The position numbers and the translations under genes are program-made. From positions 1-44,371 of the forward strand of contig JAGCXU010000027.1 in the NCBI GenBank assembly GCA_017961145.1: a stretch of DNA of 44,371 nt, read 5' to 3'. The stretch is from Bacteroidaceae bacterium (GTDB lineage: Bacteria > Bacteroidota > Bacteroidia > Bacteroidales > Bacteroidaceae). The notes under the pieces were generated by a model. That model was not told the origin of the DNA. It saw only the letters and a program-made list of their open reading frames with translations, and ran no database searches. Positions 5,483 to 44,197 of the stretch are shown piece by piece. How positions within the stretch are numbered: position 1 is the first letter of the stretch; every line of letters starts with the position of its first letter.

Positions 5483-5592
5483 GCCTGCCAAACTTCCAAA
5501 CGTAACACTATACAATCGCAAACGACACACTATACGATTGCAAACGTAAAACGTTATGTTTGGCAACGACACTGGGGTTGTTTGGCCCTAAT
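5483..5592 (-). repeat. 22-bp repeat array A (five units)
   Basis: Five head-to-tail units of exactly 22 bp start at 5483, 5505, 5527, 5549 and 5571. Units 2 and 3 share ACACTATAC at the left and GCAAACG at the right; the outer units are more degenerate. Orientation is opposite to array C. The array follows the oxidoreductase stop by 19 bases and runs up to the tRNA-Lys terminator hairpin. There is no unique spacer between units, so it is not CRISPR. Confidence 0.75.
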
Positions 5593-5595
5593 AAC

Positions 5596-5625
5596 AAGAG
5601 GAGAGACTTTTGAGTCTCTCCTCTT
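5596..5625 (-). terminator. Perfect 13-bp hairpin downstream of tRNA-Lys
   Basis: Arms at 5596-5608 and 5613-5625 are perfectly complementary with a 4-base loop. The hairpin abuts the encoded CCA end of the tRNA. The following T-tract on the minus strand is poor, so termination is probable rather than certain. It could also serve the plus-strand gene upstream. Confidence 0.7.
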
Positions 5626-5701
5626 TGGTAACCCGCTTGGGGCTCGAACCCAAGACCCCCACATTAAAAGTGTGATGCTCTACCAACTGAGCTAGCGAGT
5701 C
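5626..5701 (-). tRNA. tRNA-Lys (anticodon TTT)
   Basis: Read on the minus strand, the gene starts GACTCGC and folds into a full cloverleaf. The D-arm is GCTCAGTTGGTAGAGC, the anticodon stem-loop carries CTTTTAA (anticodon TTT), and the T-arm contains GGTTCGAGCC. The acceptor 3' strand is GCGGGTT followed by discriminator A. The CCA end is encoded (5626-5628). A G-U pair closes the acceptor stem. Confidence 0.97.
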
Positions 5702-5732
5702 AACCTAGATGCAAATTTTTCATTTGCGGCTG

Positions 5733-5740
5733 CAAAGGTA
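5733..5740 (-). promoter_or_regulatory. -7 promoter box for tRNA-Lys
   Basis: The minus strand reads TACCTTTG about 32 bases upstream of the tRNA 5' end. A short inverted repeat, GCAAAT/ATTTGC, lies between them at 5711-5727. Confidence 0.6.
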
Positions 5741-5764
5741 CAAATAAAAATGAAAAATGAAAAA

Positions 5765-6892
5765 TTATTTGTTTCCCTCTGCTTTTTGTTCTTTATCTGG
5801 TTGTTTTTGTATGTCTTTGTCCGTTTCTTTGAGGATAAATCGTCGATAATATGAAATAAGCAATGTCGTGAGAGGCAGGGCGATGATGAGTCCGATAATG
5901 CCAAGCAAACTACCCCAAACAGAAAGGCTCAGCAGGATGATAGCTGGGTTCAAGCCCATTACATGACCCATAATTTTGGGGGTCAGAAAGACGTCTTGAA
6001 TGGTCTGAACTACGGCAAAAACAGCGAGAGCACAAAGGATGATTACCCAGAAACTCTGGCCTGTATCGGCTGCTTTCACGAGGGCCAGTATGATGGTGGG
6101 AATAAAGCCCACGAGTTGCAGATAGGGGATCAAGTTGAGCAGGCCGATAAAGAGTCCCAGACCAATTGCCATCGGAAAATCTATGATTAGGAAGCCTATG
6201 CTGAAGAGGATGCCGACTATGAGAGCGATGAGCGACTGCCCACGGAAATAGGCGTTCATGCCGCTTTTCACATCCCCAGCCACCATGCTTGCAAAACTTC
6301 TTTGTCCAGTAGGGATGAAGCGAATCCAGCCTTCGGATATCTTCTCGTAATCCATCAAAATGAAAAAGAGATAGAGCAAAACAACCAGACTTCCCAGCAG
6401 TCCGATGGCAAAATTGAGTGTGCCGGAGAGAAACTCCCAAGCCTTCAGGACAAGATTCTCTGCTACATCCATTACACTACTGTGCTGCAAAAGCTTCATC
6501 AAGGAATCGTCGCTGGCATAGCTCTGCAGCATATTCTGAATGTTTGCCATGAACTCAGACGACGCAAAAGTGTCGTGGAAATAGACAGTAATCAGTTTGG
6601 CCATTCGAAGGCTCTCCTCGATGATGGGAGGCACAACGAGGAAGGCTGCAAGAGTAAGTACTGCAAGTACGATGAGCAGGGCAACAGCAATACTCAGGAC
6701 ACGATATTTCAGGCGGCATTTAATCTGCAGAAAACGGACAAAAGGATAGATCATGTAAGCCATGATCCAAGCGATGAAGAATGGCAGCAATACCTTGGAA
6801 AGGCGATTGATGAGCAATACAAGTCCTACTGCTATGAGCGCTGCAATAAGCCATCTTACAACGCGATCGAAGGTTATCTCTTTCTCTAACAT
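5765..6892 (-). CDS. AI-2E family (UPF0118) transporter
   Basis: The predicted protein is about 375 residues, an integral membrane protein with roughly eight hydrophobic segments and the family C-terminal signature (GLNPAIILLSLSVWGSLLG, then IALPLTTLL). The family is named for autoinducer-2 export, but many members are ion or solute permeases of unknown substrate, so no specific role is claimed. The start MLEKEITF at 6892 is chosen because it follows the thymidine kinase stop by two bases behind a purine-rich GAGGAGGAATAG stretch. An upstream ATG at 6946 would overlap tdk by 52 bases. It probably forms a two-gene operon with tdk. Confidence 0.88.
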   Translation of the reverse strand: MLEKEITFDRVVRWLIAALIAVGLVLLINRLSKVLLPFFIAWIMAYMIYPFVRFLQIKCRLKYRVLSIAVALLIVLAVLTLAAFLVVPPIIEESLRMAKLITVYFHDTFASSEFMANIQNMLQSYASDDSLMKLLQHSSVMDVAENLVLKAWEFLSGTLNFAIGLLGSLVVLLYLFFILMDYEKISEGWIRFIPTGQRSFASMVAGDVKSGMNAYFRGQSLIALIVGILFSIGFLIIDFPMAIGLGLFIGLLNLIPYLQLVGFIPTIILALVKAADTGQSFWVIILCALAVFAVVQTIQDVFLTPKIMGHVMGLNPAIILLSLSVWGSLLGIIGLIIALPLTTLLISYYRRFILKETDKDIQKQPDKEQKAEGNK

Positions 6893-6894
6893 TC

Positions 6895-7491: not shown

Positions 7492-7514
7492 CTTTTCTAC
7501 GTCTTTTTCAGGGA

Positions 7515-7522: not shown

Positions 7523-7537
7523 CAAAGAAATTAAAAA

Positions 7538-10530: not shown

Positions 10531-12174
10531 ATGGCTGAATTCAAGTATGCCCCAATGTTCCAGATGGGCGAGGACACGACGGAATACCGCCTCCTGACGA
10601 AGGAAGGCGTCACCGTCAGCGAGTTTGAAGGAAAGGAGATAGTTAAGGTTTCTCCTGAAGCACTTACGCTATTGGCTCAGCAAGCCTTCCACGACGTGGA
10701 GTTCATGCTGCGCCGCGAACACAATCTGCAAGTTGCACAAATCCTGAAAGACCCCGATGCCAGCGAGAACGACAAGTATGTCGCCCTCCAGTTCCTGCGT
10801 AATGCAGAGACGGCTTGCAAAGGCATCCTTCCTTTCTGCCAGGACACAGGTACCGCCATCATTCATGGCGAGAAAGGACAGCAGGTTTGGACAGGCTTCG
10901 AGGATGAGGAAGCGCTCTCTCGTGGCGTGTTCAACACCTTCACGCAGGACAATCTCCGCTACTCGCAGAACGCTCCTCTCAATATGTACGACGAGGTGAA
11001 CACGAAGTGCAACCTGCCCGCTCAGATTGACATTGAGGCTTGCGAGGGCGCAGAATACCGTTTCGTGATGGTCGCCAAAGGTGGTGGCTCGGCCAACAAG
11101 ACCTACTTCTACCCCATGACGAAAGCCACCATTCAGAACGAAGGCACGCTGCTCCCCTTCCTCGTTGAAGAGATGAAGCACCTCGGCACAGCTGCCTGTC
11201 CGCCTTACCACATAGCCTTTGTCATCGGCGGCACATCGGCAGAGAAGAACCTGCTGACTGTCAAACTGGCCAGCATCAAGTACTATGATTCTCTTCCCAC
11301 CACGGGCGACGAGACAGGACGCGCTTTCCGCGATATCGACTTGGAAAAGAAACTCCTCGAAGAAGCCCACAAGATTGGACTCGGCGCACAGTTCGGCGGC
11401 AAATACTTGGCTCACGACATCCGCGTCATCCGTTTGCCTCGTCATGGAGCAAGCTGTCCCATCGGCATGGGCGTGAGCTGCTCTGCAGACCGCAACATCA
11501 AGGCGAAGATTAACCGCGACGGCATTTGGCTGGAGAAGATGGACGATTGCCCAGGCGAACTCATTCCAGAAGAACTGCGTCTTCCTGGCGAAGGTGGCAA
11601 AGGCATAGACATTGACCTCGACAAGGGCATAGATGCCGTTCGTGCAGAACTCAGCAAGTATCCCGTCTCGACGCGCGTTAACCTTCGCGGCACGATTATT
11701 GTGGCTCGTGACATTGCCCATGCAAAACTCAAGGCACGCCTGGATGCTGGCGAGGGAATGCCACAGTACTTCAAAGACCATCCCGTTCTCTATGCAGGCC
11801 CTGCCAAGACACCAGCAGGCTATCCTTGCGGCTCGATGGGACCCACCACAGCAGGCCGTATGGACCCATATGTTGATGAGTTCCAAGCAAATGGCGGCAG
11901 CCTCGTCATGATAGCCAAGGGCAACCGCAGCCAGCAAGTGACGGATGCCTGCAAGAAGCACGGCGGCTTCTACCTCGGCACCATCGGTGGCGTGGCTGCA
12001 GTTCTCTCTCAGTCGAGCATCAAGAGCATCGAGTGCGTAGAGTATCCTGAACTCGGCATGGAAGCCATCTGGAAGATAACCGTCGAAGACTTCCCCGCTT
12101 TCATCCTCGTGGACGACAAGGGTAACGACTTCTTCAAGCAGCTCAAGCCCTGGTGCCCAGGTTGCAACAAGTAA
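10531..12174 (+). CDS. Fumarate hydratase class I (Fe-S, fused alpha/beta type)
   Basis: The product is 547 residues and interconverts fumarate and malate using a [4Fe-4S] cluster. In anaerobic Bacteroidales this step runs in the reductive direction toward succinate. Conserved segments include [12 protein letters not shown] with a cluster-ligand cysteine, [12 protein letters not shown], and [21 protein letters not shown] with further cysteines. The C-terminal domain contains [19 protein letters not shown] and [11 protein letters not shown]. Length agrees with single-chain class I enzymes. It is translationally close to hflX (two-base gap) and ends at a clear terminator. Confidence 0.96.
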
Positions 12175-12199
12175 GAGGAATCACATCCCGAAAAATAAG

Positions 12200-12227
12200 G
12201 CACGCGGCATCTGCAAATGTCGCGTGC
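12200..12227 (+). terminator. Intrinsic terminator after fumarase
   Basis: Arms GCACGCGGCA (12200-12209) and TGTCGCGTGC (12218-12227) pair over 10 bp with one G-U pair, followed by TTTGTTTG. Confidence 0.8.
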
Positions 12228-12315
12228 TTTGTTTGCAATCGTATAGTGTGATGTTTGCGTTTTTAACGTGTGATGTTTACAAACTTAACGTGGAGCATTT
12301 TCCAACACTCCACGT
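12228..12315 (+). repeat. 22-bp repeat array B (four units)
   Basis: Units start at 12228, 12250, 12272 and 12294 with exact 22-bp spacing. Units 1-3 share a TTTGC/TTTAC motif on the left and end in AGTGT, CGTGT or CGTGG. The array begins immediately after the fumarase terminator and fills most of the convergent gap to the minus-strand repeat-protein gene. Confidence 0.75.
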
Positions 12316-12318
12316 TAA
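12285..12318. terminator. 11-bp hairpin formed by array B units, between convergent genes
   Basis: TTAACGTGGAG (12285-12295) is the perfect reverse complement of 12308-12318, with a 12-base loop. Located between convergent stops, it could terminate transcription in either direction, although no strong T-tract follows. Confidence 0.5.
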
Positions 12319-12333
12319 CTTATATATTTACCT

Positions 12334-13392
12334 TTATCTGCGACCACCACGGCTGCTGCCACCGCCACCACGGCTGCCACCCATGCTACCGCCGCGAGAA
12401 GAACCTCCATAGCTGGGAGAACTGCCACGACTCATGCCAACGCTACTGCCGCGAGAAGAGCCTCCATAGCTGGGTGAACTGCTGCGACTGCTGCTCATGC
12501 TGCTGCCACGAGAAGAGCCTCCGTAGTTGGGAGAGCTGCTACGACTGCTACTCATGCTGCTGCCGCGAGAAGAGCCTCCGTAGTTGGAAGAGCTGCCACG
12601 ACTCATGCTGCCGCTCATGCGAGAACTGCTGCTATCAAAAGAGTTACCACGACTCACATTGCCACGATTCATGTTACCTTGATTCATGCCGCCGTGATTG
12701 CCAGAGTTCACGTTTCCATGATTGCCAGAATTCATTCCGCCGCTTCGATTACCGCCGTCTGAACGACCATTGCCGCTGCGACCAACTCCATTGTGATTAC
12801 CATTGCGGCTACCAGAACGATGATTATCCAGATCGATATGATAACCATTGCCACTGATGCGACGTCCTTCATTGCGACTTCCAACATGCCCTACAGCCGG
12901 ACGATGCATGTCATGACCTCTTAGACCTCCGTTCCAGAGCGGACGACGATTGCCGTAGAAGCCATCGCGATAGTAGCTGCGACCATGACCGCCATAGTAG
13001 GAAACCCATACGCTAGGACGGCTATAGTAGAAATAACCGCGATTGTAATAGCTGTAGATGGGGAAGTACCAACCACCTGCACGCCATAAGATGGGACGCA
13101 GGAAGTAGTCGGCTGCCGTCAGAAGGCTGTACTGCCAGTCGTGCAGGATGCAGCGAAGGTCATACAGACGATAGGTGTAGTAGCTGCCATAAAGATCAGA
13201 AGGAGAATCGATACGAAGGAAGTAATCGAGGTTGATCTCGTAGGCATCGTTATACTGCTGCTCATTGAGGTTGAGTTCATACGCCATCTTGTCCGTCAGA
13301 TAGAGAGCCTCAGCCTGAGCACGTTCGAAACTCATTGCGCTGGCACCCATCCAGGCTGCCATCATCATCAGGGAAAGAACTAACTTTTTCAT
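12334..13392 (-). CDS. Secreted Tyr-rich protein with Ser/Gly/Arg repeat tail, function unknown
   Basis: The product is 352 residues with a Sec signal peptide (MKKLVLSLMMMAAWMGASA). Residues 20-145 form a helical then Tyr/Trp/Arg-rich domain (LRPILWRAGGWYFPIYSYY and similar). Residues 150-230 are Asn/Gly/Arg-rich (GNHGNVNSGNHGGMNQGN). From about 255 to the end the tail is Ser/Gly repeats of 19 residues (YGGSSRGSSMSSSRSS), closing with GGSRGGGGSSRGG. I do not recognise a family with known function. Composition suggests an exported, disordered, cationic surface or periplasmic protein. The repeat-coding DNA is a minisatellite. It is convergent with fumarase. Confidence 0.85.
   Translation of the reverse strand: MKKLVLSLMMMAAWMGASAMSFERAQAEALYLTDKMAYELNLNEQQYNDAYEINLDYFLRIDSPSDLYGSYYTYRLYDLRCILHDWQYSLLTAADYFLRPILWRAGGWYFPIYSYYNRGYFYYSRPSVWVSYYGGHGRSYYRDGFYGNRRPLWNGGLRGHDMHRPAVGHVGSRNEGRRISGNGYHIDLDNHRSGSRNGNHNGVGRSGNGRSDGGNRSGGMNSGNHGNVNSGNHGGMNQGNMNRGNVSRGNSFDSSSSRMSGSMSRGSSSNYGGSSRGSSMSSSRSSSPNYGGSSRGSSMSSSRSSSPSYGGSSRGSSVGMSRGSSPSYGGSSRGGSMGGSRGGGGSSRGGRR
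12394..12619 (-). repeat. 57-bp coding minisatellite (about four units)
   Basis: Units begin at 12394, 12451, 12508 and 12565, each opening with (G/A)CGAGAAGA on the plus strand and exactly 57 bp apart. The last is incomplete. The period equals 19 codons, so copy-number change keeps the reading frame. Confidence 0.9.
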
Positions 13393-15606: not shown

Positions 15607-16232
15607 TTTTTATCCTTTTGGTCTGCAAATGTACGGACTTTTTGTGAAACATACAAGTCCTTTGCTTTTATTTCATCCCAAACAGCAGCAGGAAGACCTT
15701 CACCATCATAATTGGGGTCGGTTGAAATGCGACGACGTATCTCAGTACTGCTGATATCTATCAAAGGTGTATCGGCTATAGTCACTTTTCGAGGCACTTT
15801 CTGCAAGTCATAACCTGGTCTGGGATAGATGATAATGCGGTATTTCGCGAGGATTGACTTGCTGCGATACCAATCGGAGAAGCGCTCCCAATTGTCTGCA
15901 CCAATAACAAGCACAAACTCTCGGTTGGGGTGTTCCTTGCTCAAGGCTTTCAGCGTATTATACATATAGGAAGGGCGAGGCAGGGAGAACTCGCGATCGC
16001 AAACCTCCACACCAGGCACATCGACAACTGCAAGACGAGCCAGATGCAACCTTTCCTCGTCATCGAGAAGGTTCGCATCCACCTTGAAGGGATTCTGAGG
16101 CGAGACTAAAAGCCACATTTCATCGACCAGACCGCTCTCTGCCAAAGCCTTTGCCAAGCGGAGATGCCCTTCGTGAATGGGGTTGAAACTGCCTCCATAG
16201 ATTCCCGTTACAAGTCTCTCTGAATTAGTCAT
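15603..16232 (-). CDS. nadD: Nicotinate-nucleotide adenylyltransferase
   Basis: The product is 209 residues and adenylates nicotinate mononucleotide to deamido-NAD in NAD synthesis. The nucleotidyltransferase signature GGSFNPIHEGH is at residues 14-24. LVIGADNWERFSDWYR and the ISSTEIRRR motif near the C-terminus are intact. Length is normal. The order yicC-gmk-nadD is conserved in Bacteroidetes. Here the gmk-nadD gap holds a 22-bp repeat array. Confidence 0.95.
   Translation of the reverse strand: MTNSERLVTGIYGGSFNPIHEGHLRLAKALAESGLVDEMWLLVSPQNPFKVDANLLDDEERLHLARLAVVDVPGVEVCDREFSLPRPSYMYNTLKALSKEHPNREFVLVIGADNWERFSDWYRSKSILAKYRIIIYPRPGYDLQKVPRKVTIADTPLIDISSTEIRRRISTDPNYDGEGLPAAVWDEIKAKDLYVSQKVRTFADQKDKK
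15626..15633 (-). promoter_or_regulatory. Possible internal -7 box within nadD for the PCMD gene
   Basis: The minus strand reads TACATTTG, 20 bases before the PCMD start and inside the last codons of nadD. It could be chance, since it is coding sequence. Confidence 0.35.
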
Positions 16233-16259
16233 TTGGTTTCGTGTGAAAATGTGGCGTGT

Positions 16260-16347
16260 TATGATGGCAAACGTATAGTGTTATGATTGCGATCGTATAG
16301 TGTGACGTTTGCAATTTACTAGTGTGACGTTTGTCATTTACTAGTGT
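16260..16347 (+). repeat. 22-bp repeat array C (four full units plus degenerate flanks)
   Basis: Units begin at 16260, 16282, 16304 and 16326 and each ends in AGTGT. Units 3 and 4 (GACGTTTG...TTTACTAGTGT) differ at only two positions. A partial fifth unit (GACGTTTGCGAAC) starts at 16348, and a degenerate one precedes at 16238. The minus-strand gmk stop and its last residues (SSQTSH) are written in units 4 and 5. The array fills the gmk-nadD intergenic gap inside a probable operon. Confidence 0.85.
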
Positions 16348-17402
16348 GACGTTTGCGAACTACCTTGCAGGAATTCGTTCAGCAGGTCAACTGCCTCTTG
16401 TTTTGCGACATCGAGGTCGTCGTTGACAAGGATGCGATCGAACTGCGAGGCGAACGTCATTTCGTACTCCGCTTTAGCCAATCTTTGTTCAATTTGCGCC
16501 ATTTCATCGGTATTTCTGCGTATCAGACGCTCCCTCAAGACCTCCACCGAAGGCGGTTGGATGAAGACGCTCAAGGCATCGTCGCCATAGTATTTCTTTA
16601 TATTTATGCCGCCCTTCACATCGACATCAAATACCACATTCATGCCCGCAGCCAGTTTCTCCTCAACTTGAGACTTGAGGGTTCCGTAGAAACGGCCTTC
16701 GTAAACCTCCTCATACTCGAGGAAATCGTCGTCTTCAATATGGCGACGGAACTCTTCTGGCGAAAGGAAATAGTAATCCACACCATTCTGTTCTTCCCCT
16801 CGCGGAGGCCTGCTGGTGGCACTTACGCTGAATGCAAGCCTGAACTCAGGATGCTCCTTCATCAGGAAATTTACGATTGTGCTCTTGCCCGAACCCGACG
16901 GAGCCGAAACGATAATGACCTTTCCAGCCTCCCCCGACCCCTCCAAAAGAGGGGTGAACGGTTCTGCTCGAAGTTCTTCATTTATTTTATTCATCACTCT
17001 TTCTATATTATCGATTATTTCTTCATTTGTTGTACGTATCACTTTATAGCCCAGCCGCATCAGTTCCTCAGTTCGACGAGCATCCGAAACCTGTTGCACA
17101 GCCTTTTTATGATAACCCCCATCAACCTCAATAATCAGTTTTCGCGACAAACATACGAAGTCCGCAATATAGTCTCCAATGATGTGTTGTCGTCTGAAAC
17201 GAACACCACATTGAGAAGCTCGAAGTGCGTTCCAAAGTATGCTTTCTGCCTCAGTTGGATTCTTACGGTTTTCTTGCGAGAACTTCCGCAACAGATTGTA
17301 AGCCGTACAGTTTGCCGTTTCGCATCCTCGCTTCATTTCTACGATTGGTCCGCAGCCTTCCCCCCTCCTTTGGAGGGGATGGGGGAGGCTACTACAACAC
17401 AT
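16341..17402 (-). CDS. gmk: DUF559 endonuclease-like domain fused in frame to guanylate kinase
   Basis: The open frame is 353 residues. Residues about 35-140 are a DUF559 (Vsr/PD-(D/E)XK-like) domain with NPTEAESILWNALR, VRFRRQHIIGDYIADFVC, IIEVDGGYH and GYKVIRTTNEEI. All hallmark residues are present. Residues 159-353 are a complete guanylate kinase (GMP to GDP with ATP) with P-loop APSGSGKST, SVSATSRPPRGEE, the GVDYYFLS segment and LIRRNTDE. The junction PFTPLLEGSGEA is encoded by a terminal inverted repeat of the inserted element. Guanylate kinase has no ATG of its own immediately upstream; the nearest in-frame start is Met137 at 16994, with Met23 at 17336 for the DUF559 part. Whether the cell makes a fusion, a shorter kinase, or both is unknown. 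It overlaps the yicC stop by 11 bases. Confidence 0.9.
   Translation of the reverse strand: MCCSSLPHPLQRRGEGCGPIVEMKRGCETANCTAYNLLRKFSQENRKNPTEAESILWNALRASQCGVRFRRQHIIGDYIADFVCLSRKLIIEVDGGYHKKAVQQVSDARRTEELMRLGYKVIRTTNEEIIDNIERVMNKINEELRAEPFTPLLEGSGEAGKVIIVSAPSGSGKSTIVNFLMKEHPEFRLAFSVSATSRPPRGEEQNGVDYYFLSPEEFRRHIEDDDFLEYEEVYEGRFYGTLKSQVEEKLAAGMNVVFDVDVKGGINIKKYYGDDALSVFIQPPSVEVLRERLIRRNTDEMAQIEQRLAKAEYEMTFASQFDRILVNDDLDVAKQEAVDLLNEFLQGSSQTSH
16926..17390 (-). mobile_element. 465-bp element with terminal inverted repeats carrying the DUF559 gene
   Basis: Left end (plus strand) opens AGCCTCCCCCGACCCCTCC and the right end read inward on the minus strand opens AGCCTCCCCCATCCCCTCC. The two ends match over about 30 bases with few differences, and each end contains an internal hairpin (CCCCTCC/GGAGGGG type). 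The interior is visibly more A/T-rich than neighbouring genes and encodes only the DUF559 domain. It lies one base past the yicC stop and extends into the N-terminus of gmk. No target-site duplication is evident. Mobility is inferred from structure. Confidence 0.6.
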
Positions 17403-25400: not shown

Positions 25401-26959
25401 CCATTCAAGACGCCATACAGGAATACGACAACTTCAGGCAACGAACCCGTCAGACCGACTCTGTCTGTGCTATCGACAACCAGTTGCTGCACCACATTGG
25501 CGAGGTTGCTGATGTGATGGGACTGGAGTGTTATGTCGTAGGAGGCTATGTGCGCGACATTATCCTTGAGCGTCCTTCGAAGGATATCGATGTGGTGGTG
25601 GTCAATCCAAAGCAGGAAAAGAACGAGGACGGCCCAGGTATCCGGCTCGCAAAGGCGCTTTCGAAGGATTTGGGACGAGGGGCTCACGTCAGCGTTTTCC
25701 GCAATTTCGGTACGGCGCAACTCAAGTGGCGAGACCAAGAGGTTGAGTTCGTGGGAGCTCGTCGCGAGAGTTATCAGAGAGATAGCCGCAAGCCGATTGT
25801 TGAGGACGGTACCCTCGACGACGACCTTCATCGCCGAGACTTTACCATAAATGCTTTGGCGGTTTGTCTCAACCAGAATCGTTATGGCGAACTCATCGAC
25901 CTATTCGATGGCTTGCTCGACCTCGAGGATGGCATCATCGCTACCCCTCTCGACCCAGATATCACGTTTAGCGACGACCCTCTCCGCATGATGCGATGCA
26001 TTCGATTTGCCACTCAGCTGCGTTTTGAAATAGAGGAAGAGACGCAAGAGGCTTTGAAGCGAAATGCCGAGCGCATCAAGATCATCTCGCAAGAACGCAT
26101 TATCGACGAGTTGAACAAGATTATGATGACTTCCGCGCCCAGCATCGGCTTCATAGAACTAAGCCGAAGTGGGTTGCTGCCCATCATTCTTCCAGAGGTT
26201 GCAGCACTCGAAGGGGTTGAGTCAAGAAATGGACGCGCACACAAGGACAACTTCTATCATACGCTCGAAGTGCTTGATAATGTTGCTTCCACCACAGATG
26301 GAGAGTCTTCGCTTTACCTCAGATGGGCCGCCCTTCTGCACGATATCGGCAAGCCTCGCAGCAAGCGATGGGACAATGTGGCTGGTTGGACGTTTCACAA
26401 TCACAACTATATCGGCCAGAAGATGGTGGCTCCGCTCTTTAGAAGGCTGAAACTTCCGCTCGACGAGCGCTTGACTTATGTCGAAAAACTTGTGGGGCTC
26501 CACATGAGGCCAATCGCTATTGCAGATGACGAAGTGACCGATAGTGCCGTCCGTCGCTTGCTTTTCGAGGCCGGAGAGGACATCGACGACCTGATGCTAC
26601 TCTGCGAAGCCGACATTACAAGCAAGAATCGCGAGAAGAAGCAACGTTTCCTGCAGAACTTCCAACTTGTCCGCGAGAAACTTATCGACCTGCAAGCTCG
26701 CGACAACTACCGCACCTGGCACAACCCCATAACTGGCGAAGAAATCATGGAAACCTTTGGTCTTCAGCCATGTAGAGAGGTCGGAATACTGAAACAAGCA
26801 ATAAAAGACGCCATTTGGGACTCGCTTATTCCGAACGAACACGATGCTGCATTTCAGTTCATGCTGAGCAAAGCAAAAGAGATGAACCTGCTGCCCAAAA
26901 CAACATCACAGCAGGTAAACGAAAACATAACACGTGAAGTTGACCAACGACACACGTGA
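25397..26959 (+). CDS. cca: CCA tRNA nucleotidyltransferase with HD domain
   Basis: The product is 520 residues. The class II nucleotidyltransferase head has GGYVRDIILERPSKDIDVV with catalytic Asp63 and Asp65, then DDDLHRRDFTINALA and the RMMRCIRFATQL helix of the nucleotide-binding neck. An HD domain follows (LLHDIGKP, near residue 315). Such proteins add or repair tRNA 3' CCA; CCA-adding versus poly(A) activity cannot be told apart here. The last eleven residues (ITREVDQRHT region) are written by a 22-bp repeat array, so the C-terminus is probably not conserved. Confidence 0.93.
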   Translation: MTIQDAIQEYDNFRQRTRQTDSVCAIDNQLLHHIGEVADVMGLECYVVGGYVRDIILERPSKDIDVVVVNPKQEKNEDGPGIRLAKALSKDLGRGAHVSVFRNFGTAQLKWRDQEVEFVGARRESYQRDSRKPIVEDGTLDDDLHRRDFTINALAVCLNQNRYGELIDLFDGLLDLEDGIIATPLDPDITFSDDPLRMMRCIRFATQLRFEIEEETQEALKRNAERIKIISQERIIDELNKIMMTSAPSIGFIELSRSGLLPIILPEVAALEGVESRNGRAHKDNFYHTLEVLDNVASTTDGESSLYLRWAALLHDIGKPRSKRWDNVAGWTFHNHNYIGQKMVAPLFRRLKLPLDERLTYVEKLVGLHMRPIAIADDEVTDSAVRRLLFEAGEDIDDLMLLCEADITSKNREKKQRFLQNFQLVREKLIDLQARDNYRTWHNPITGEEIMETFGLQPCREVGILKQAIKDAIWDSLIPNEHDAAFQFMLSKAKEMNLLPKTTSQQVNENITREVDQRHT

Positions 26960-27003: not shown

Positions 27004-28413
27004 ATGATACAGAGGAACTTGCAAACACAAGAGCAAACGCAACAGCAAGTGCAAGTACAACAGCTGCTGCCTCAGCAAGTTATGCTTGTTCGTCTGATGG
27101 AAATGCCTGTCGAAGCTTTGCAGCATCGAGTGGAGCTCGAATGCTTGGAAAACCCTTGGTTGGAACGCAAGGAAGAGGAAGAAGGCCCAATATATAACGG
27201 GCAATGGACAATGGATAATGGTCAATCAGAAAAGGATGACGCTTCCTATGACTATCGCAGCGAAGAAGACATACCCGACTTTCTTAGTGGTGTCAGCCAC
27301 AGCAACAATGCTGCCGAGTTCATGTCCTACGATGACACACTCTCCTTGACTGACCGCCTCCGCGAACAAATGGCGGACTTCGAACTCACGGACCACGAGA
27401 AAGAACTCATGGAATACCTCATCGGTTCGCTCGACGAAGACGGACTCCTCAAGAAATCCCTCGCCATCCTTGCCGACGAAGCAGAGATATATCAAGGACT
27501 TAACACGAATGTCGCAGAACTGGAGCGAGTTCTCGAGGTCCTGCAGCAGTTCGATCCTCCGGGCATTGGCGCGCGTTCCCTGCAAGAATGTCTGCTCATA
27601 CAGGTTCGTCGAGACGAGAATAATCCCCATCGCGAACTGCTCATCAAAGTACTGGACAAGTACTTCGACGACTTCATTCACAAGCGTTGGCAACGATTAG
27701 GGCCTCGTCTGCACATCAATCAAGCACAAGTAGAACAACTGCAACGCGAGATTCTGAAACTCAATCCACGTCCTGGAGGCTCCATCGGAGCCAAGACTTC
27801 CGACCGAGCACAAAGCATACAGCCCGACTTTATGGTCGATACAGACGAGGACGGAACTATTACCGTCACTTTGAGTCGCGGCAATCAGCCCTCGCTCATC
27901 ATCAGCTCGGATGCCGATGGACAACAAGACACCTTCGTCCGTCAGTATGTAGAACGCGGACAAATGTTCATCAATGCCTTGCAGCAACGCTCGGAAACAA
28001 TGATGCGTACCATGCAAGCCATCGTTAAGTTGCAGAAGCCGTTCTTCCAAACGGGAGACGAAACATTACTGCGACCCATGAAACTCGAAGATGTGGCTGA
28101 AGCTACAGGCTACGACATCAGTACCATCAGCCGCGTTGCAAACAGCAAATACGTCGAGACAACCTTCGGCACCTATCCCTTGAAATGGTTCTTCACTCAC
28201 AAAGCCACCCAAAGTAATGAAGGCGAAGACGTTACCGCTCGACAGATTATGGCTGCCCTGCGACAACATATAGAAAAAGAAGACAAACGACAGCCACTCA
28301 GCGACGAAAGCCTGACACAACTTCTTCAAGCAGATGGCTTCAATATAGCTCGACGCACAGTCGCAAAGTATCGAGAACAAATGGGCATCCCCGTAGCAAG
28401 GATGAGGAAATGA
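27004..28413 (+). CDS. rpoN: RNA polymerase sigma-54 factor
   Basis: From the ATG at 27004 the protein is 469 residues. Region I is Gln-rich with QTQQQVQVQQLLPQQ and the LECLENPWLE segment. A variable acidic region II follows and includes a heptanucleotide-encoded stretch. The core-binding domain has LDEDGLL and FDPPGIGARSLQECLL, then the HTH and the RpoN box ARRTVAKYRE near the C-terminus. It directs enhancer-dependent transcription. The ATG at 27004 is preferred over a GTG at 26956 inside the repeat array, because family N-termini begin close to this point. PAP2 overlaps its stop by four bases. Confidence 0.94.
   Translation: MIQRNLQTQEQTQQQVQVQQLLPQQVMLVRLMEMPVEALQHRVELECLENPWLERKEEEEGPIYNGQWTMDNGQSEKDDASYDYRSEEDIPDFLSGVSHSNNAAEFMSYDDTLSLTDRLREQMADFELTDHEKELMEYLIGSLDEDGLLKKSLAILADEAEIYQGLNTNVAELERVLEVLQQFDPPGIGARSLQECLLIQVRRDENNPHRELLIKVLDKYFDDFIHKRWQRLGPRLHINQAQVEQLQREILKLNPRPGGSIGAKTSDRAQSIQPDFMVDTDEDGTITVTLSRGNQPSLIISSDADGQQDTFVRQYVERGQMFINALQQRSETMMRTMQAIVKLQKPFFQTGDETLLRPMKLEDVAEATGYDISTISRVANSKYVETTFGTYPLKWFFTHKATQSNEGEDVTARQIMAALRQHIEKEDKRQPLSDESLTQLLQADGFNIARRTVAKYREQMGIPVARMRK
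27202..27229 (+). repeat. Heptanucleotide tandem repeat inside rpoN
   Basis: Units CAATGGA, CAATGGA, TAATGGT and CAATCAG occur in tandem in the acidic linker, encoding roughly QWTMDNGQS. The tract resembles simple heptad tracts elsewhere in the window (7538, 42895). Confidence 0.75.
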
Positions 28414-29630: not shown

Positions 29631-30809
<1,179 letters not shown>

Positions 30810-30853
30810 TGCAAAGGAGGATACACTGACATCTAGGGACGAATGAAAACACG

Positions 30854-30941
30854 GCACGCCAAGTTGCCCAACATAACGTGTTACGATTGCAAACTTCACG
30901 TGTTAAGTTTGCGATTTACCTGTGGTATGTTTTGTTGAACT
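30854..30941 (+). repeat. 22-bp repeat array E (four units)
   Basis: Units begin at 30854, 30876, 30898 and 30920. Units 2 and 3 both open ACGTGTTA and are inverted internally, so that ATTGCAAACTT (unit 2) pairs with AAGTTTGCGAT (unit 3) around CACGTGTT. The array lies 45 bases after the ispG stop and may end that transcript. Confidence 0.75.
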
Positions 30942-31087: not shown

Positions 31088-31810
31088 CTATTTCAGCTTA
31101 AATATGAAGGGTATCGTGAAGTGACTGCGGACGATTCTTCCTTCCTCGTCCTTCGCCGGCGACCATCTGGGCATCTCCTTCATGACGCGCTCGGCCTCAG
31201 CATAAAGCAGTTCGCCTATGTTCTGTCCAACCTGCAGGTGCTCCTGATTGTCGGGATAGGCTGCATTGTATTCATCCACCTGTTTCTGCGTCAACTTGAT
31301 GCCTGGACCACGTATCTTCCTGATATTCGAGATGCTGCCATCCTTCTCCACTACAAAAATGACGATAACCCGACCCTGTACGCCGAAGTGTTTGCATGGA
31401 CGCGGATAACGACTATGTTCGTTAATGAAATTAAAGCATTTCTCAAAGCCACCAGGGTACTCGGCATTTACTGCCACGACTTTGTAGATGGAGTCTGTCT
31501 GCGCCACTTTATCTTGCTTTGGAGATACGGCACGGTAAGCGGCAAAAGACAGCCCGCATAGGAAGACGGCGATGAGGATAGCGGCAGTCTTCCAAAGTGA
31601 AGAAGCAAAGCTCAGGCGCGGGCGGAGTCTTCTCTCTTCACTCTTCACTTCTTCGGGCTGGAGCATGTCGAAAGTCTCGCGAAGCTCCTCATAATATGCC
31701 TTGCACTCGGGGCAATTCTTCATGTGCTCGCTCAGTTGAGCCTGAGTCTGCAGGTCGATAGTCTTGTCGAAAAGGTCGGCAACCTTTTCCTTGAATTCAT
31801 TGCACTTCAT
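31088..31810 (-). CDS. Anti-sigma factor with zinc-finger N-terminus and TonB C-terminal domain
   Basis: The product is 240 residues. Residues 1-45 are a zf-HC2 anti-sigma zinc finger with Cys3, then HMKNCPECKAY providing the His and Cys ligands. A transmembrane segment spans about 75-93 (AAILIAVFLCGLSFAAY). Residues about 118-240 are a TonB C-terminal domain (YPGGFEKCFNFI, GVQGRVIVIFVVEKDGSISN). The arrangement suggests a membrane protein that holds the upstream ECF sigma factor and touches a TonB-dependent partner in the periplasm. It starts 17 bases after the sigma gene, so they form an operon. The signal is unknown. Confidence 0.88.
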   Translation of the reverse strand: MKCNEFKEKVADLFDKTIDLQTQAQLSEHMKNCPECKAYYEELRETFDMLQPEEVKSEERRLRPRLSFASSLWKTAAILIAVFLCGLSFAAYRAVSPKQDKVAQTDSIYKVVAVNAEYPGGFEKCFNFINEHSRYPRPCKHFGVQGRVIVIFVVEKDGSISNIRKIRGPGIKLTQKQVDEYNAAYPDNQEHLQVGQNIGELLYAEAERVMKEMPRWSPAKDEEGRIVRSHFTIPFIFKLK

Positions 31811-34324: not shown

Positions 34325-35740
34325 ATGGAACTCATATATCTTCTGTATCTCATCATCGGCATTGCTTTGGGAGCCATTGCTGTCTTCTTTGCCATGCGGT
34401 CGCAGGTGCAGGCTGGCAAGGAACGTATCGCCCTGACCGAACAGCAGAAACAGCAGGAAGGAGAGTCACTCCGCCAACAGATGCGCGACCAGCAGGAGAC
34501 GTACCGCCAGCAGATACAGGCGATGCAGGAGTCGCAGCAGCAACAGGTGCGCGAGCAACGCGAATCACTTCAGCAGCAGTTGCGTTCGCAGCAAGAGTCT
34601 CAGCAACAGCAGATGGCACAGCAGATGGCACTCCTGCGCGAGCAGATGAGCACCACCTCCGAGCGCGTACTCAAGGAACGTGCGGCAGAGCTTTCTATCG
34701 TCAACAGCGAACAGCTCTCCAAGATACTCGACCCGCTGCAGGATGACCTACGGCAAATGCGCTCGCAGACGGAAAAGATGCAGAAGGACCACAACGACTC
34801 GCTGCTCCAATTGAAAGCGGCCATACAGGTCAACATGGAACGCGAGCGGGCGATGGGCGAGCAGACGGAACGACTGGCACAGGCCCTTACCGGTCAGAAC
34901 AAGATACAAGGCAATTTCGGCGAACTCAAGTTGACGCAGATACTGGAACAGATGGAACTGGAACGCGGCCTGCAATACGACACGCAGGAGACAATGCGCG
35001 ACGAGCAGGGCCGCACCATCACAAGCGACGAAGGACGCCGCATGGTGCCCGATGCCGTGCTGCACTTCCCTGACGGTCGAGATGTCATCATCGACAGCAA
35101 GATGTCCTTCACGGCCTTCGTCGATTACCAGAACGCCGAGAGCGAGGCAGAACGCGAGGCAGCTCTGCGCCGTCACCTTGCCAGCATGAGGCAGCACGTC
35201 CGCGAACTCGCACAGAAGCAATACTTCCGCTATGCCAAGACGGACAAAGGCAGGCTCGACTTCGTGCTGATGTACGTCTTTCAGGAGAGCGCCCTACAAC
35301 TTGCCCTGCAAAGCGACACGACACTATGGAAAGATGCTTACGATCAGGGCGTTGTCATTTCCGGCAGCCAATCGCTCTACATGACCTTGCGCGTGCTCGA
35401 ACTTACTTGGAAGCAGACGCGACAGGTGGAGAACCAAGAGAAGATGATGCAGTGCGCCAACACCCTCGTGGAGCGCGTGCAGCTCTTTGCCGAACGCTTT
35501 GCCCGTGTTAGCGACCTCCTCGACAAGACACGCCGTAGCTTCGACGACCTTACGACCGTCACTGCCCCTTCCGGCCCCAGCATCACCACCGCCGCCCGCA
35601 ACCTCCTTCGCTTTGGCGCTCAGGAAAACAAGAAGAAGAAATCTCTCGCTTCGCCAACTTCGCTAGAGGAAAAAGAAGAAGGAAGCGACGATGCGGCTAA
35701 TCAAGTTGAGCAACTAGGCGTGCCTAATTCGCAAACTTAA
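34325..35740 (+). CDS. rmuC: DNA recombination protein RmuC
   Basis: The product is 471 residues from MELIYLLYL at 34325. It has an N-terminal membrane helix, then a Gln-rich coiled coil (about residues 35-130). The RmuC nuclease-like domain follows with QGNFGELKLTQILEQMELERG, PDAVLHFPDGRDVIIDSKMSF, DFVLMYVFQE and the SPSSLYMTLR-like GSQSLYMTLRVLE. RmuC limits recombination at inverted repeats, which is notable in a repeat-rich region. The final residues (GVPNSQT) are encoded by 22-bp array F, so the true conserved C-terminus lies earlier. Confidence 0.94.
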   Translation: MELIYLLYLIIGIALGAIAVFFAMRSQVQAGKERIALTEQQKQQEGESLRQQMRDQQETYRQQIQAMQESQQQQVREQRESLQQQLRSQQESQQQQMAQQMALLREQMSTTSERVLKERAAELSIVNSEQLSKILDPLQDDLRQMRSQTEKMQKDHNDSLLQLKAAIQVNMERERAMGEQTERLAQALTGQNKIQGNFGELKLTQILEQMELERGLQYDTQETMRDEQGRTITSDEGRRMVPDAVLHFPDGRDVIIDSKMSFTAFVDYQNAESEAEREAALRRHLASMRQHVRELAQKQYFRYAKTDKGRLDFVLMYVFQESALQLALQSDTTLWKDAYDQGVVISGSQSLYMTLRVLELTWKQTRQVENQEKMMQCANTLVERVQLFAERFARVSDLLDKTRRSFDDLTTVTAPSGPSITTAARNLLRFGAQENKKKKSLASPTSLEEKEEGSDDAANQVEQLGVPNSQT

Positions 35741-35783
35741 CGTGCCTAATTTGGAAATTAGGCGTGGCATGTATTGGAGCGTG
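35718..35783 (+). repeat. 22-bp repeat array F (three units) overlapping the rmuC stop
   Basis: Units begin at 35718, 35740 and 35762. Units 1 and 2 share CGTGCCTAATT. The rmuC stop (35738-35740) falls at the unit 1/2 boundary. GCCTAATTT and AAATTAGGC (35744-35763) form a 9-bp perfect hairpin with a two-base centre. Confidence 0.8.
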
Positions 35784-35831
35784 TTTCATCGATTTTTCTC
35801 TTATTTGCTTGCACAGTTCGATATTTAATAC

Positions 35832-42173: not shown

Positions 42174-42191
42174 AAAAATTTGTTTTCTTAC

Positions 42192-42220: not shown

Positions 42221-42226
42221 AGGCAG

Positions 42227-42721
42227 ATGACACAGACAGAGTTCGAACATTTGCTCCTCCAGACGCGCGACGAGATGATGCGTGTCGCCATGAGTTTCTT
42301 CCACAATAGGGAAGATGCTGAGGACGTGGTGCAGGAAGTATGTATGCGAATGCTTGAAAGAGGTTGGAAGAGCGGCGACAACACAGAAGCCTTGCTCATC
42401 AAAGCAACAAAGAACCTGTGTGTGAGCGTCTGGCGAAGGCAGAAACTGCAACAACAGGCATCGCCGTTCATTCCTCCTTTGGAAGGAACGGAGGAGGCTG
42501 CAGACGCTCCTCTCCTTCAGCAAGAACAAAAAGAGCAGCTAGACAAAGCCATCGCCGAACTGACCCCTTCCGAACAAAGGTTCATCCGAATGAAAGGTGA
42601 AGAACTGAGCATCGAGGAGATGGCAGAACAGACAGGCGTCTCGAAGCGAACAGCAAGCACAATGCTCTGGCAAGCCAAGAAGCGATTACTCACTTTCCTA
42701 AAGATAAACAAAGATGATTGA
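42227..42721 (+). CDS. ECF-type RNA polymerase sigma factor with repeat-encoded linker
   Basis: The product is 164 residues. Region 2 contains MRVAMSFFHNREDAEDVVQEVCMRML, and region 4 contains AELTPSEQRFIRMKGEELSIEEMAEQTGVSKRTASTML. The linker between them holds PFIPPLEGTEEAADAP, encoded by DNA closely resembling the palindromic family at 16926. Region 4 is preceded by a Gln/Glu-rich stretch. The downstream gene overlaps its end by eight bases and has a single membrane span, so it is a candidate anti-sigma or regulator. Confidence 0.9.
   Translation: MTQTEFEHLLLQTRDEMMRVAMSFFHNREDAEDVVQEVCMRMLERGWKSGDNTEALLIKATKNLCVSVWRRQKLQQQASPFIPPLEGTEEAADAPLLQQEQKEQLDKAIAELTPSEQRFIRMKGEELSIEEMAEQTGVSKRTASTMLWQAKKRLLTFLKINKDD
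42474..42499 (+). repeat. In-frame relic of the palindromic repeat inside the ECF sigma gene
   Basis: The stretch opens CTCCTTTGGAAGG and ends GGAGGAGGCT. By eye it agrees with the TonB-receptor copy (2977-3002) at 23 of 26 positions, and it extends leftward as CCGTTCATT, like CCGTTCACC at the gmk junction. It encodes PLEGTEEA in the linker. Confidence 0.6.
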
Positions 42722-43058
42722 CAAGGAACTGATTCACCAAGCAGCCGAAGACATCGACATCTTCGAGGCCGACCTCACCGAAGAGTTCGAGCAGTTGACC
42801 AAGCCGCATCGAACGATTCGCCTCTGGCCGCTGGCTGTCGCAGCCTGTGCCGCAGGCGTCGCCTTCATCCTTCTCATGCCGCCACGAACAGATGATGGAC
42901 AACAGACAACGGACAACAGACAATGGTCAACAGACAATGGTCAATGGCGGGTGGCAGGCGGGTTGGAAGCCCAACTCGCACACCAGCAAGAGATAAAGGA
43001 AAAGGGCGAAAGGCTTGCCGCTTACGTCCGGGAATATACGACAAACGAAATGCAATAA
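42714..43058 (+). CDS. Small single-span membrane protein, candidate anti-sigma partner
   Basis: The product is 114 residues. An acidic N-terminus (about 1-38) precedes one transmembrane segment (LWPLAVAACAAGVAFILLM), then a periplasmic tail. The first part of the tail (TDDGQQTTDNRQWSTDNGQW) is encoded by a heptanucleotide tandem repeat. Position and topology suit an anti-sigma factor, though no zinc-finger motif is present. No family was recognised. It overlaps the sigma gene by eight bases and the lipoprotein gene starts 14 bases after it. Confidence 0.75.
   Translation: MIDKELIHQAAEDIDIFEADLTEEFEQLTKPHRTIRLWPLAVAACAAGVAFILLMPPRTDDGQQTTDNRQWSTDNGQWRVAGGLEAQLAHQQEIKEKGERLAAYVREYTTNEMQ
42895..42943 (+). 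repeat. Heptanucleotide tandem repeat inside the small membrane protein gene
   Basis: Seven tandem heptamers alternate ATGGACA, ACAGACA, ACGGACA, ACAGACA, ATGGTCA, ACAGACA and ATGGTCA. A single-unit change would shift the frame, while a three-unit change would not. Confidence 0.85.
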
Positions 43059-43072
43059 GACAATAAGACACT

Positions 43073-44074
43073 ATGAGACGTTTATATATTATTACAACTG
43101 CCGTGCTCGCCATCTTGAGCCTTGCATCCTGCAAACAGCCCCTGCATGAGCGGCAGATTGAGACCGTGGGCGAACTGATGGACAGCCTGATAAACAGAGG
43201 AGAGCAAGTGTATCGCTACATCATCTGCGAAGGGGACTCCACTTACCAGGACGAGCGTTGGTTCTACTATATCTCTAATAGGGGGAACAGCTATGTGCAG
43301 CAGAGCAGCCTCCTCTTCCTGGCTGACAAGACGCCCGACCTGCTGGACAAACTTTGCCGGAAAGCGGAGAAGAGCTATCGCTACTGGGAAGGCGACTCGC
43401 TCGACTACAGCATCACCATGCACTCGAAGCCTCTGGAACTGCTCAGCTTCAAGCACTACAAGAACGAAAAGGACGAGGAAGTCGTTAGCCTCTCTCATAC
43501 GACCATGAAGTATGCCCAGCATCTGTCTGCTCTTTACGACCCCCAACCTATCCAAGCAGTCTTGCAGAAGTTCCTCTCCGAGCAGAAAGACGTGAAGACC
43601 TACGACGTCTGCTACGAATGGGACGAAGGCGTTCCCTTCACCGACCTCAACGGTGGAAACTTCCAGCTCGGCGGCCTGTGGAAAGGTCAGGGCATTGATT
43701 CTTTGGCCGCAGCAAAGATTACGGGCACACTCTACGACGTTACCTTCAAGGAAGAAAGCCGTGCCGACTCAGCGAATGCAGACCTTAACCGACGCATGAC
43801 GAAGCTCATTACCGAACGGCCCATCAAGGGGGCATTCTTGTCGTCATACTATCCTGGGAGAGAGAAGAAGTATTCTTATCTTCAAGGTATCAAGATTTGC
43901 GACTGGCAAAAGCGCAAAGTATTCTACGACCTGAACGCGCATGTAGAAGGCCACAGACTCCATATCCTCGAGCTTCAGGCAGCTGATGCGCCACGCTTCG
44001 CCAAGCCGATAAGCTGGTGGGTCGTGAAGGGAATCCACAACGACAAACTCGTCTATATGAACTTAGAACGGTAG
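43073..44074 (+). CDS. Lipoprotein of unknown function in the sigma operon
   Basis: The product is 333 residues with a lipoprotein signal ending LASC (Cys20). The mature part is mixed alpha/beta with many Tyr and Trp (GDSTYQDERWFYYISNRG, KKYSYLQGIKICDWQKRK) and a C-terminal WWVVKGIHNDKLVYMNLE. It has no recognised domain. It lies 14 bases after the small membrane protein gene and is probably the regulated output of the operon. A repeat-array terminator follows. Confidence 0.8.
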   Translation: MRRLYIITTAVLAILSLASCKQPLHERQIETVGELMDSLINRGEQVYRYIICEGDSTYQDERWFYYISNRGNSYVQQSSLLFLADKTPDLLDKLCRKAEKSYRYWEGDSLDYSITMHSKPLELLSFKHYKNEKDEEVVSLSHTTMKYAQHLSALYDPQPIQAVLQKFLSEQKDVKTYDVCYEWDEGVPFTDLNGGNFQLGGLWKGQGIDSLAAAKITGTLYDVTFKEESRADSANADLNRRMTKLITERPIKGAFLSSYYPGREKKYSYLQGIKICDWQKRKVFYDLNAHVEGHRLHILELQAADAPRFAKPISWWVVKGIHNDKLVYMNLER

Positions 44075-44109
44075 ATCAGAGACAGCCCAGCAGAGCGTCG
44101 GAAAACTAG

Positions 44110-44197
44110 GCGTGCCACGTTGGCAAACGTAACGTGCCACATTCGCAAACATAACGTGCCACGATTGCCAACGTGGCACGTTATGTTTTATCATGAC
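44110..44197 (+). repeat. 22-bp repeat array G (four units)
   Basis: Units begin at 44110, 44132, 44154 and 44176. The first three share CGTGCCAC and a (T/C)GCAAAC or TGCCAAC core. This is the most regular copy in the window. Confidence 0.85.
44151..44184 (+). terminator. 13-bp hairpin formed by array G units
   Basis: ATAACGTGCCACG (44151-44163) is the perfect reverse complement of 44172-44184, with loop ATTGCCAA, followed by GTTTTATC. It probably terminates the sigma-lipoprotein operon. Confidence 0.7.

What the first reader, a model, noticed from the sequence alone, without database searches (positions are those of the whole stretch)
5483..44197. Dispersed family of 22-bp-period arrays at gene 3' ends
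Seven arrays (5483, 12228, 16260, 26930, 30854, 35718, 44110) have 3-5 head-to-tail units. Units diverge strongly between and within arrays, yet every one holds exactly 22 bp, two turns of B-DNA. A shared core resembling CGATTGCAAACG follows a variable ACGTG- or ACACTA-type end. Arrays occur in both orientations and always at or just after a stop codon. There are no spacers, so they are not CRISPR. The fixed period with drifting sequence suggests selection on helical phasing, for example for a DNA-binding or nucleoid protein, or an expansion mechanism with 22-bp steps. Arrays C and D sit inside probable operons, so a pure terminator role is unlikely.
Basis: seen in the sequence. Interest (0 to 1): 0.85.

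Follow-up and report, generated by a model that had tools for sequence, protein, structure and literature searches.

The report
Genus-wide 22-bp palindromic DNA arrays
This gut-type bacterium and several of its close relatives carry, between their genes, short rows of palindromic DNA sites set 22 letters apart; the letters differ between species while the spacing stays the same, which suggests docking rows for a protein not yet identified.

Summary
A profile built from 169 arrays outside the window finds exactly seven arrays in it at pitch 22, none at 20, 21, 23 or 24, none in 20 shuffles and none in 308 kb from other families of the order. The family is spread through the window's genome. Lag 22 also stands out in several other species of the genus, some with unrelated palindromes. 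Arrays tend to be dyad-symmetric. Orthologous arrays often differ by whole 22-bp units. Orthologous places can hold another dialect or family, and unrelated families can follow each other in register. 'Always at a stop codon' is overstated: 33 of 189 lie between divergent genes. There is no transcript-strand preference. Best reading: DNA-level rows of dimer-binding sites two in-vivo helical turns apart, changing in 22-bp steps; no binding protein was found. Nearest known kinds are REP/BIME mosaics and the BrickBuilt minisatellite; a defining feature of each was tested and not met. A mobile or neutral palindromic minisatellite is the main rival.

The parts
5475..5584 (.). Array A, between convergent genes (GFO/IDH/MocA oxidoreductase 4378-5463 +; AI-2E transporter family 5765-6892 -), beside tRNA-Lys 5626-5701
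   Evidence: profile score 68.3; TRF period 22; Pfam; tRNA
12192..12323 (.). Array B, between convergent genes (fumarase-type 10531-12174 +; 12334-13392 -)
   Evidence: profile score 59.7; lag score 13.5; an array also lies at the end of the orthologous gene in G008
16224..16377 (.). Array C, between two minus-strand genes, overlapping the 3' end of 16341-17402
   Evidence: profile score 70.2; query with 47 matches in the own genome
26900..27009 (.). Array D, over the stop of 25397-26959 (poly(A) polymerase head domain) and before 27004-28413 (sigma-54), both +
   Evidence: profile score 52.3; TRF; Pfam
30824..30933 (.). Array E, after the GcpE gene 29631-30809 (+), convergent with 31088-31810 (-)
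   Evidence: profile score 60.4; Pfam
35688..35797 (.). Array F, over the stop of the RmuC-family gene 34325-35740 (+)
   Evidence: profile score 29.7; TRF; Pfam
44080..44211 (.). Array G, after gene 43073-44074 (+); last module inverted, giving a long hairpin
   Evidence: profile score 58.4; fold z -6.05

Best explanation
The arrays are DNA-level rows of dimer-binding sites. Each 22-bp module is two 11-bp half-sites facing each other, so half-sites alternate in orientation along the array. A sequence-specific protein (or a family of paralogous ones) binds each dyad as a dimer, and neighbouring dimers touch on the same face of the helix; that contact fixes the pitch at two in-vivo turns. Because the contact, not the letters, is the constraint, half-sites can drift into species dialects and even be replaced by another palindrome, while pitch cannot change. 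Arrays gain and lose whole modules by slippage or unequal exchange. They sit mostly just behind stop codons and away from starts, as a chromosome-architecture or insulating element would. Shown: pitch, dyad tendency, gain and loss by 22, dialects, swaps at a few orthologous places, a few in-register mosaics, no strand preference. Inferred: the protein, its dimer-dimer contact, the architectural role.
For: Pitch 22 only. Best dyad phase 0.63 on average against 0.51 for column-permuted arrays; 47 of 103 arrays exceed the control's 95th percentile. Unrelated palindromes keep pitch 22 in sister species. Of 14 neighbouring array pairs, 6 had dyad scores of at least 0.5 and unlike sequences; 4 of those 6 are exactly in phase modulo 11 bp (this filter was set after seeing the table). 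Gaps in 38 orthologous pairs: 19 of 61 inside arrays are multiples of 22, 2 of 49 outside. Orthologous substitution is position-specific: 0.071 and 0.081 at two half-site positions, 0.264 at another. Partner half-sites within a module (0.461) or across modules (0.476) are no more alike than other pairs up to two modules apart (0.450-0.481), as expected for independent contacts rather than base pairing. No strand bias: 35 against 35; sense strand more stable in 66, antisense in 75 of 141. In 68 orthologous regions of other-family species an array is present in 6 of 11 where a TTGCAA-family species has one and in 0 of 57 where it has none; regions of at least 100 bp: 6 of 10 and 0 of 19, p 4e-4. 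22 bp is two turns at 11.1 bp (PMC1762422, passages).
Against: No protein identified; HU-HIG, the one DNA-binding family counted, is in all 8 genomes tested (4 in array-poor G004, 12 in array-poor G001, 6-10 in the others). Substitution inside arrays overall (0.134) is not lower than outside (0.108, which includes coding DNA). Module order favours whole-array folding slightly (mean z -0.60, s.e. 0.09, 156 arrays), and in 23 T arrays the two outermost half-sites agree better (0.70 differences) than any other pair (1.35-2.09), which independent dimers do not predict. T comes in bursts (142, 109, 43 pattern hits in three genomes, none in 122 of 139), like a mobile element. G004 has no lag-22 hit in 80 kb, so arrays are dispensable in the genus. 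Two of the six unlike neighbouring pairs are out of phase.
Confidence: 0.45

Rival explanations
1. Non-autonomous mobile or neutral palindromic minisatellite (BrickBuilt/BIME-like). Arrays spread as small inverted-repeat elements, then expand and contract by 22 bp; the shared pitch is inherited from one ancestral unit or set by the copying machinery, with no cellular function.
For: Neighbouring modules are most alike, 0.70, falling to 0.41-0.49 at six modules and more. Whole-unit differences between orthologues. T family: mostly three modules, bursts in few genomes, and in G076 part of longer dispersed repeats. Strong PF01797 transposase genes were found in 7 of 27 genomes searched, and 6 of those 7 hold T pattern hits; but so do 11 of the 20 without a strong one. 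K family in 24 of 139 genomes. Two phage contigs carry the same array, of the window's dialect.
Against: Unrelated palindromes share the pitch and can be in register; no array of constant pitch 20, 21, 23 or 24 was found in the window; arrays recur at orthologous places across families; flanks of the window's family share little and no target duplication was seen, though only one arrayless orthologue was looked at closely; no PF01797 match in G000.
Confidence: 0.3
2. RNA structure: arrays are transcribed at 3' ends and act as hairpins (terminator, stabiliser or processing signal).
For: 3' bias. Window arrays A, C, E, G fold better than dinucleotide shuffles (z -2.3, -3.3, -3.0, -6.1); B, D, F do not clearly (0.2, -1.8, -0.6). 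Outer arms of T arrays stay complementary.
Against: No sense-strand preference in 141 co-directional arrays. 33 of 189 lie between divergent genes. Separate terminator-like hairpins stand beside arrays at L061 and L120/L147/L085 (read by eye). No Rfam match at gathering score in the window except a tRNA. The terminator scan found none in 12100-12400, round array B.
Confidence: 0.12
3. Mutational bias: replication template switching in quasi-palindromes perfects inverted arms and adds units, so arrays are a by-product of replication (mechanism recalled, not from a call).
For: In nine distinct G076 T arrays the arms are mostly identical (half-sites 1 and 6 in 6 of 9, 2 and 5 in 8 of 9) while the central pair never is (0 of 9). 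Neighbours most alike.
Against: Does not explain one pitch for unrelated families, nor position-specific conservation, nor absence of the 35-base pattern from the 294 genomes of other genera of the order that were searched.
Confidence: 0.08
4. Chance or low-complexity artefact.
For: None.
Against: 0 hits in 20 shuffles and in 308 kb of other families.
Confidence: 0.01

Closest known systems
REP elements and bacterial interspersed mosaic elements (BIMEs), PMC2817692 (passages read)
   Same: Extragenic, abundant, palindromic, species-specific, regularly spaced in alternating orientation, sometimes hybrids of two repeat types.
   Different: Unit is 22 bp with invariant pitch shared by unrelated palindromes; no RAYT-type (PF01797) match in the window's genome or in G008, G005, G036, G024, which share the family; G027, which also has it, does have one.
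BrickBuilt minisatellite/MITE of Porphyromonas gingivalis, PMC4596501 (abstract, sections 5, 8, 9 and part 1 of 2 of section 7 read)
   Same: Spacer-free tandem repeat between genes, imperfect units, whole-unit gain and loss between strains, long stem-loops predicted, patchy host range. The paper also mentions 22-nt repeats in strain W83, which were not compared here.
   Different: BrickBuilt has 23-nt units, 19 copies in ATCC 33277, leader and tail with IS5-like terminal repeats, one sequence family; here 22 bp, about one lag-22 array per 10 kb, no shared leader or tail seen in the window's family, many families with one pitch.
22-bp iterons of plasmid origins (recalled, not from a call)
   Same: Repeats of about two turns as protein-binding rows.
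   Different: Here many chromosomal places in both orientations and dyad-symmetric; a Rep gene was not looked for.

Membership tests
REP/BIME with RAYT | extragenic palindromic repeat in over 100 copies | tested here: met
   2 of 210 arrays inside ORFs; 24 lag-22 hits in 242.5 kb of the own genome, about 260 per genome by extrapolation
REP/BIME with RAYT | cognate RAYT transposase in the genome | tested here: not met
   PF01797: no match in G000 nor in G008, G005, G036, G024, G012, G001; 7 of 20 genomes match. G000 is 86% complete, so a missed gene is possible
REP/BIME with RAYT | repeat flanks the RAYT gene | tested here: inconclusive
   12 loci scanned: no T-like module in any; lag-22 repeats in 5 of 12, none of the window's family by eye; 4 read in full show other palindromes next to the gene, but L293 (G085) also has, near 2109, a sequence like window array F
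REP/BIME with RAYT | binds gyrase, IHF or Pol I | not testable with these tools
   needs a binding assay
BrickBuilt | 23-nt unit | tested here: not met
   22 only; 0 hits at 23 in the window
BrickBuilt | leader and tail with IS5-like terminal inverted repeats | tested here: not met
   340 array ends: flank columns carry at most 0.40 bit within 10 bp of the edge and at most 0.16 bit from 11 to 44 bp; the T family in G076 does lie in longer repeats
BrickBuilt | whole-unit expansion and contraction | tested here: met
CRISPR array | unique spacers between repeats | tested here: not met
   units abut
MITE | terminal inverted repeats with target-site duplication | tested here: inconclusive
   arrays tend to be inverted repeats, but the one own/G008 place without an array in G008 (L061/L075) is not a clean empty site

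The most novel reading that the evidence does not exclude
A pitch code: one genus uses a set of paralogous, fast-diverging DNA-binding proteins that assemble side by side on chromosomal rows of palindromes; only the 22-bp pitch is fixed, so any palindrome for which a paralogue exists can stand in any slot, species evolve their own dialects, families replace each other at the same place, and mosaics work. It would be a bacterial counterpart of a combinatorial, sequence-swappable chromatin element.
Probability: 0.25. Interest if true: 0.92.

Novelty: new variant of a known kind. Interest (0 to 1): 0.74.

Why it matters
If pitch is the conserved trait and sequence is free, these arrays are a natural experiment on what fixes spacing in bacterial chromosomes, and related species provide several independent versions. 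They would make it testable whether bacterial interspersed repeats are selfish or architectural, a question open for REP and BIME elements. Even if purely selfish, a set of elements that shares a step size but no sequence would call for a new copying or mobilising mechanism.

Tried and rejected
CRISPR: no spacers. RAYT as mobiliser: no PF01797 match in G000; in relatives the link with T copies is loose (6 of 7 genomes with a strong match hold T, but so do 11 of 20 without), and no T-like module lies in 12 loci round such genes; not settled, but not pursued. RNA role: no strand bias, weak order effect. HU-HIG expansion: not discriminating. Rfam: only a tRNA in the window. Family-blind spacing of dyads: too sparse for perfect 12-mers (58 in the own-genome sample); for relaxed dyads 22 is the commonest spacing in other genus stretches (29) but not in the own genome (5), which adds no support there. 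The long flank palindrome at L279:1-208 lies at a contig start and is probably an assembly fold-back; the T array inside it (L279:72-137) was still counted. Literature: searches listed no report of such arrays (only one search listed papers, six, seen as a listing); most subscription papers are not in that library.

Rows dropped: 8 of 14 neighbouring pairs (weak dyads or alike sequence), 2 of 210 arrays in ORFs and 19 not between two called genes. In the 20-genome sample lags 14, 18, 21 and 27 are also raised (15, 12, 11, 7 against 15 at lag 22), and some lag-22 hits there are not palindromic (L219, L234). Loci L111-L190 were fetched because they hold arrays, so the concordance counts (67 of 69 rows with an array in the target; both 35, one only 7, none 195) are biased; one search counts on the unselected side. 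Of its 6 shared places, 4 are dialects of the TTGCAA family and 2 unrelated palindromes; in one of these (L173/L289) the intergenic region is much longer and the position only loosely the same. The T search required three modules; that three is usual rests on the lag scans, where L274:6818 has a degenerate fourth. The 169 profile arrays include a few of other families picked up by the same rule.
Full report
Observation. The seven arrays are real. Tandem Repeats Finder gives period 22 at five of the seven places. A lag scan that knows nothing of the sequence gives 4 hits at lag 22 in the window (none at 15-27 otherwise) and 20 in 198,148 bp from 20 further contigs of the same genome, with at most 1 at any other lag from 15 to 26; those contigs were chosen by number, leaving out three already fetched for arrays. 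A profile built from 169 arrays outside the window finds exactly seven arrays in it at pitch 22 and none at pitch 20, 21, 23 or 24; it finds none in 20 shuffles and none in 308,162 bp of 20 stretches from other families of the order. Array C alone, used as a BLAST query, has 47 matches in the window's genome, only 40 of 205 first-look candidates being scored.

Anatomy. Arrays tend to be dyad-symmetric. In the window's family one centre is TTGCAA and the other, 11 bp on, is ACACTA or a relative; a 22-bp period with one dyad must have a second at half period. The best dyad phase scores 0.63 on average against 0.51 when the 22 columns are permuted, and 47 of 103 arrays exceed the 95th percentile of that control. 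Modules run from one TTGCAA centre to the next: 173 arrays, 137 of them with 4 to 7 modules, starting (C)AAAC, ending GTTT(G), with little shared flank. Neighbouring modules are most alike, 0.70, falling to 0.41-0.49 at six modules and more. Read in order, many arrays show a gradient from AAATTG|CAAACG on one side through CGATTG|CAATCG to CGTTTG|CAATTT on the other (by eye), so arrays tend to be inverted repeats as wholes. Window array G folds as one long hairpin (z -6.05), A, C and E are at -2.3 to -3.3, and B, D, F at 0.2, -1.8 and -0.6. Against permuted module order the effect is real but small, mean z -0.60, s.e. 0.09, 156 arrays.

Genus-wide. The same period appears with unrelated palindromes in other species: AAGACGCGCGTCTT, GGTTAACC, GGGACGCGTCCC, TTGAACATACATGTACATTCAA, TCTGCAGAGAAGT, GCTCCACGGAGC, TCGCACCGTGGTGCGA, TTCTGCTGCAGAA. 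In samples of 80 kb, lag-22 hits were 8 in G012, 9 in G035, 1 in G001 and 0 in G004, and 4 in 73 kb of G016. G076 has 41 hits at lag 22 in 369,541 bp and at most 6 at any other lag from 15 to 30, with at least six palindrome families by eye. In a mixed sample of 20 genomes lag 22 gives 15, but lags 14, 18 and 21 give 11 to 15 too, so the excess is not shown for every species; the order control gives 0 at lag 22. The 35-base pattern of the window's family is in 1 of 295 genomes drawn from the order, the window's own, which was also the only one of its genus in that draw. A scan of named genomes stopped at its limit with 82 stretches; the 80 listed are all from MAGs labelled Bacteroidaceae, Bacteroidales or Prevotellaceae bacterium.

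Families with one pitch. The T family (TTGCACATACATGTAGATGCAA type) is mostly three modules. It has 142, 109 and 43 pattern hits (up to two per array) in G076, G035 and G005 and occurs in 17 of 139 genomes. In 23 T arrays the outermost half-sites differ by 0.70 letters on average, every other pair by 1.35 to 2.09. In G076 some T arrays lie in longer dispersed repeats. The K family (GTACTGGAGTTTTCCCACGG type) is in 24 of 139 genomes. In G076, at L281:12632-12790 and L267:1078-1247, modules of two unrelated palindromes follow one another without loss of the 22-bp register; of six unlike neighbouring pairs with strong dyads four are exactly in phase modulo 11 bp and two, both at L272, are not.

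Evolution. Species have dialects: the centre ACACTA makes up 40-60% of modules in G000, G005, RUG12460 and RGIG9745, ACACGT about 50% in G008 and G036. Orthologous arrays often differ by whole units: regions of 320, 298 and 276 bp at L033/L149/L080, 276, 254 and 232 at L041/L116/L113. In 38 orthologous pairs, 19 of 61 gaps inside arrays are multiples of 22, against 2 of 49 outside; other lengths inside include likely alignment slips (six of 20, six of 2) and eight single-base gaps. Substitution within modules is uneven, 0.071 and 0.081 at two half-site positions against 0.264 at another, though the mean (0.134) is not below the flanks (0.108, coding DNA included). At L064, where the window's genome has a K array, the record of G008 has a TTGCAA-type array in the aligned place. 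In the fairest test, 68 intergenic regions of other-family species (G076, G125, G122, G065 stretches) with an orthologous gene pair in TTGCAA-family species: array in both 6, only in the TTGCAA species 5, only in the other 0, none 57; for regions of at least 100 bp 6, 4, 0, 19, Fisher p 4e-4. Two of the six are unrelated palindromes, four are dialects.

Where they sit. Of 210 distinct arrays, 2 are inside ORFs although 87% of the DNA is coding; 189 lie between called genes, 42 convergent, 114 co-directional, 33 divergent. In unselected stretches 12 of 35 convergent, 23 of 123 co-directional and 8 of 51 divergent regions of 120-600 bp hold one; convergent against the rest p 0.04, against divergent alone p 0.07. 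Co-directional arrays are nearer the upstream stop in 87 and nearer the start in 26. Divergent ones keep a median of 130 bp from the nearer start. In the window all seven are at or just past a stop. Gene calls are from a simple caller of my own, so some starts and small genes may be wrong.

Mechanism. The RNA rival predicts a preferred strand; there is none: 35 arrays read ACACTA in sense and 35 in antisense, and the sense strand folds better in 66 of 141. Partner half-sites of one module do not covary beyond background, so each half-site behaves like an independent contact. Pitch that survives change of sequence, and can hold between unlike neighbours, points to contact between neighbouring bound dimers on one face of the helix. 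In-vivo fits of the helical repeat in E. coli gave 11.1 and 11.6 bp (PMC1762422, passages), so 22 bp is close to two turns in the cell. The protein is not identified; this step is inference. The main rival, a selfish or neutral palindromic minisatellite, explains bursts, whole-unit changes and an array on phage contigs with a terminase gene, but not one pitch for many sequences.

Known kinds. REP/BIME mosaics are the nearest in style, but no match to their transposase family was found in the window's genome or in four relatives sharing the family; a fifth, G027, has one, and the loci round such genes give no clear cognate link. BrickBuilt is the nearest minisatellite, but has 23-nt units and transposon-like ends (PMC4596501). 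I therefore file it with neither, and rate it a new variant of the broad kind 'bacterial interspersed palindromic repeats'.

Noticed in passing
window 16341-17402 (-): One ORF matches DUF559 (residues 39-144) and guanylate kinase (161-339), an unusual-looking fusion.
   Followed up: no
window 12382-12609: Four copies of a 57-bp repeat inside the ORF 12334-13392 (-), which has no Pfam match.
   Followed up: no
window 42887-42944; L083:11473-11565; L099:13587-13692: Heptamer-type repeats (AATGGTC/AACAGAC kind, periods 7, 14, 21), a second repeat class in the genus.
   Followed up: no
L213:12860-12937, L214:7680-7757: Two IMG/VR contigs carry the same array, of the window's dialect; L213 has a terminase large subunit gene.
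   Followed up: partly
L258, L292, L256, L293: Y1 transposase (PF01797) genes of relatives flanked by other palindromes such as CCTGGGGC..GCCCCAGG, a probable ordinary RAYT/REP system; L293 near 2109 also has a sequence like window array F.
   Followed up: partly
L258:615-697 and L292:613-695: Lag-22 arrays of differing sequence beside similarly placed ORFs (717-1193 and 715-1191, -) in G035 and G076, a possible further dialect change in one place.
   Followed up: no
L219:18097-18302: About nine copies of a 22-bp repeat that looks non-palindromic, so not every 22-bp array in the genus is dyadic.
   Followed up: no
L279:1-208: Near-perfect 208-bp palindrome at a contig start, probably an assembly fold-back through a T array.
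   Followed up: partly
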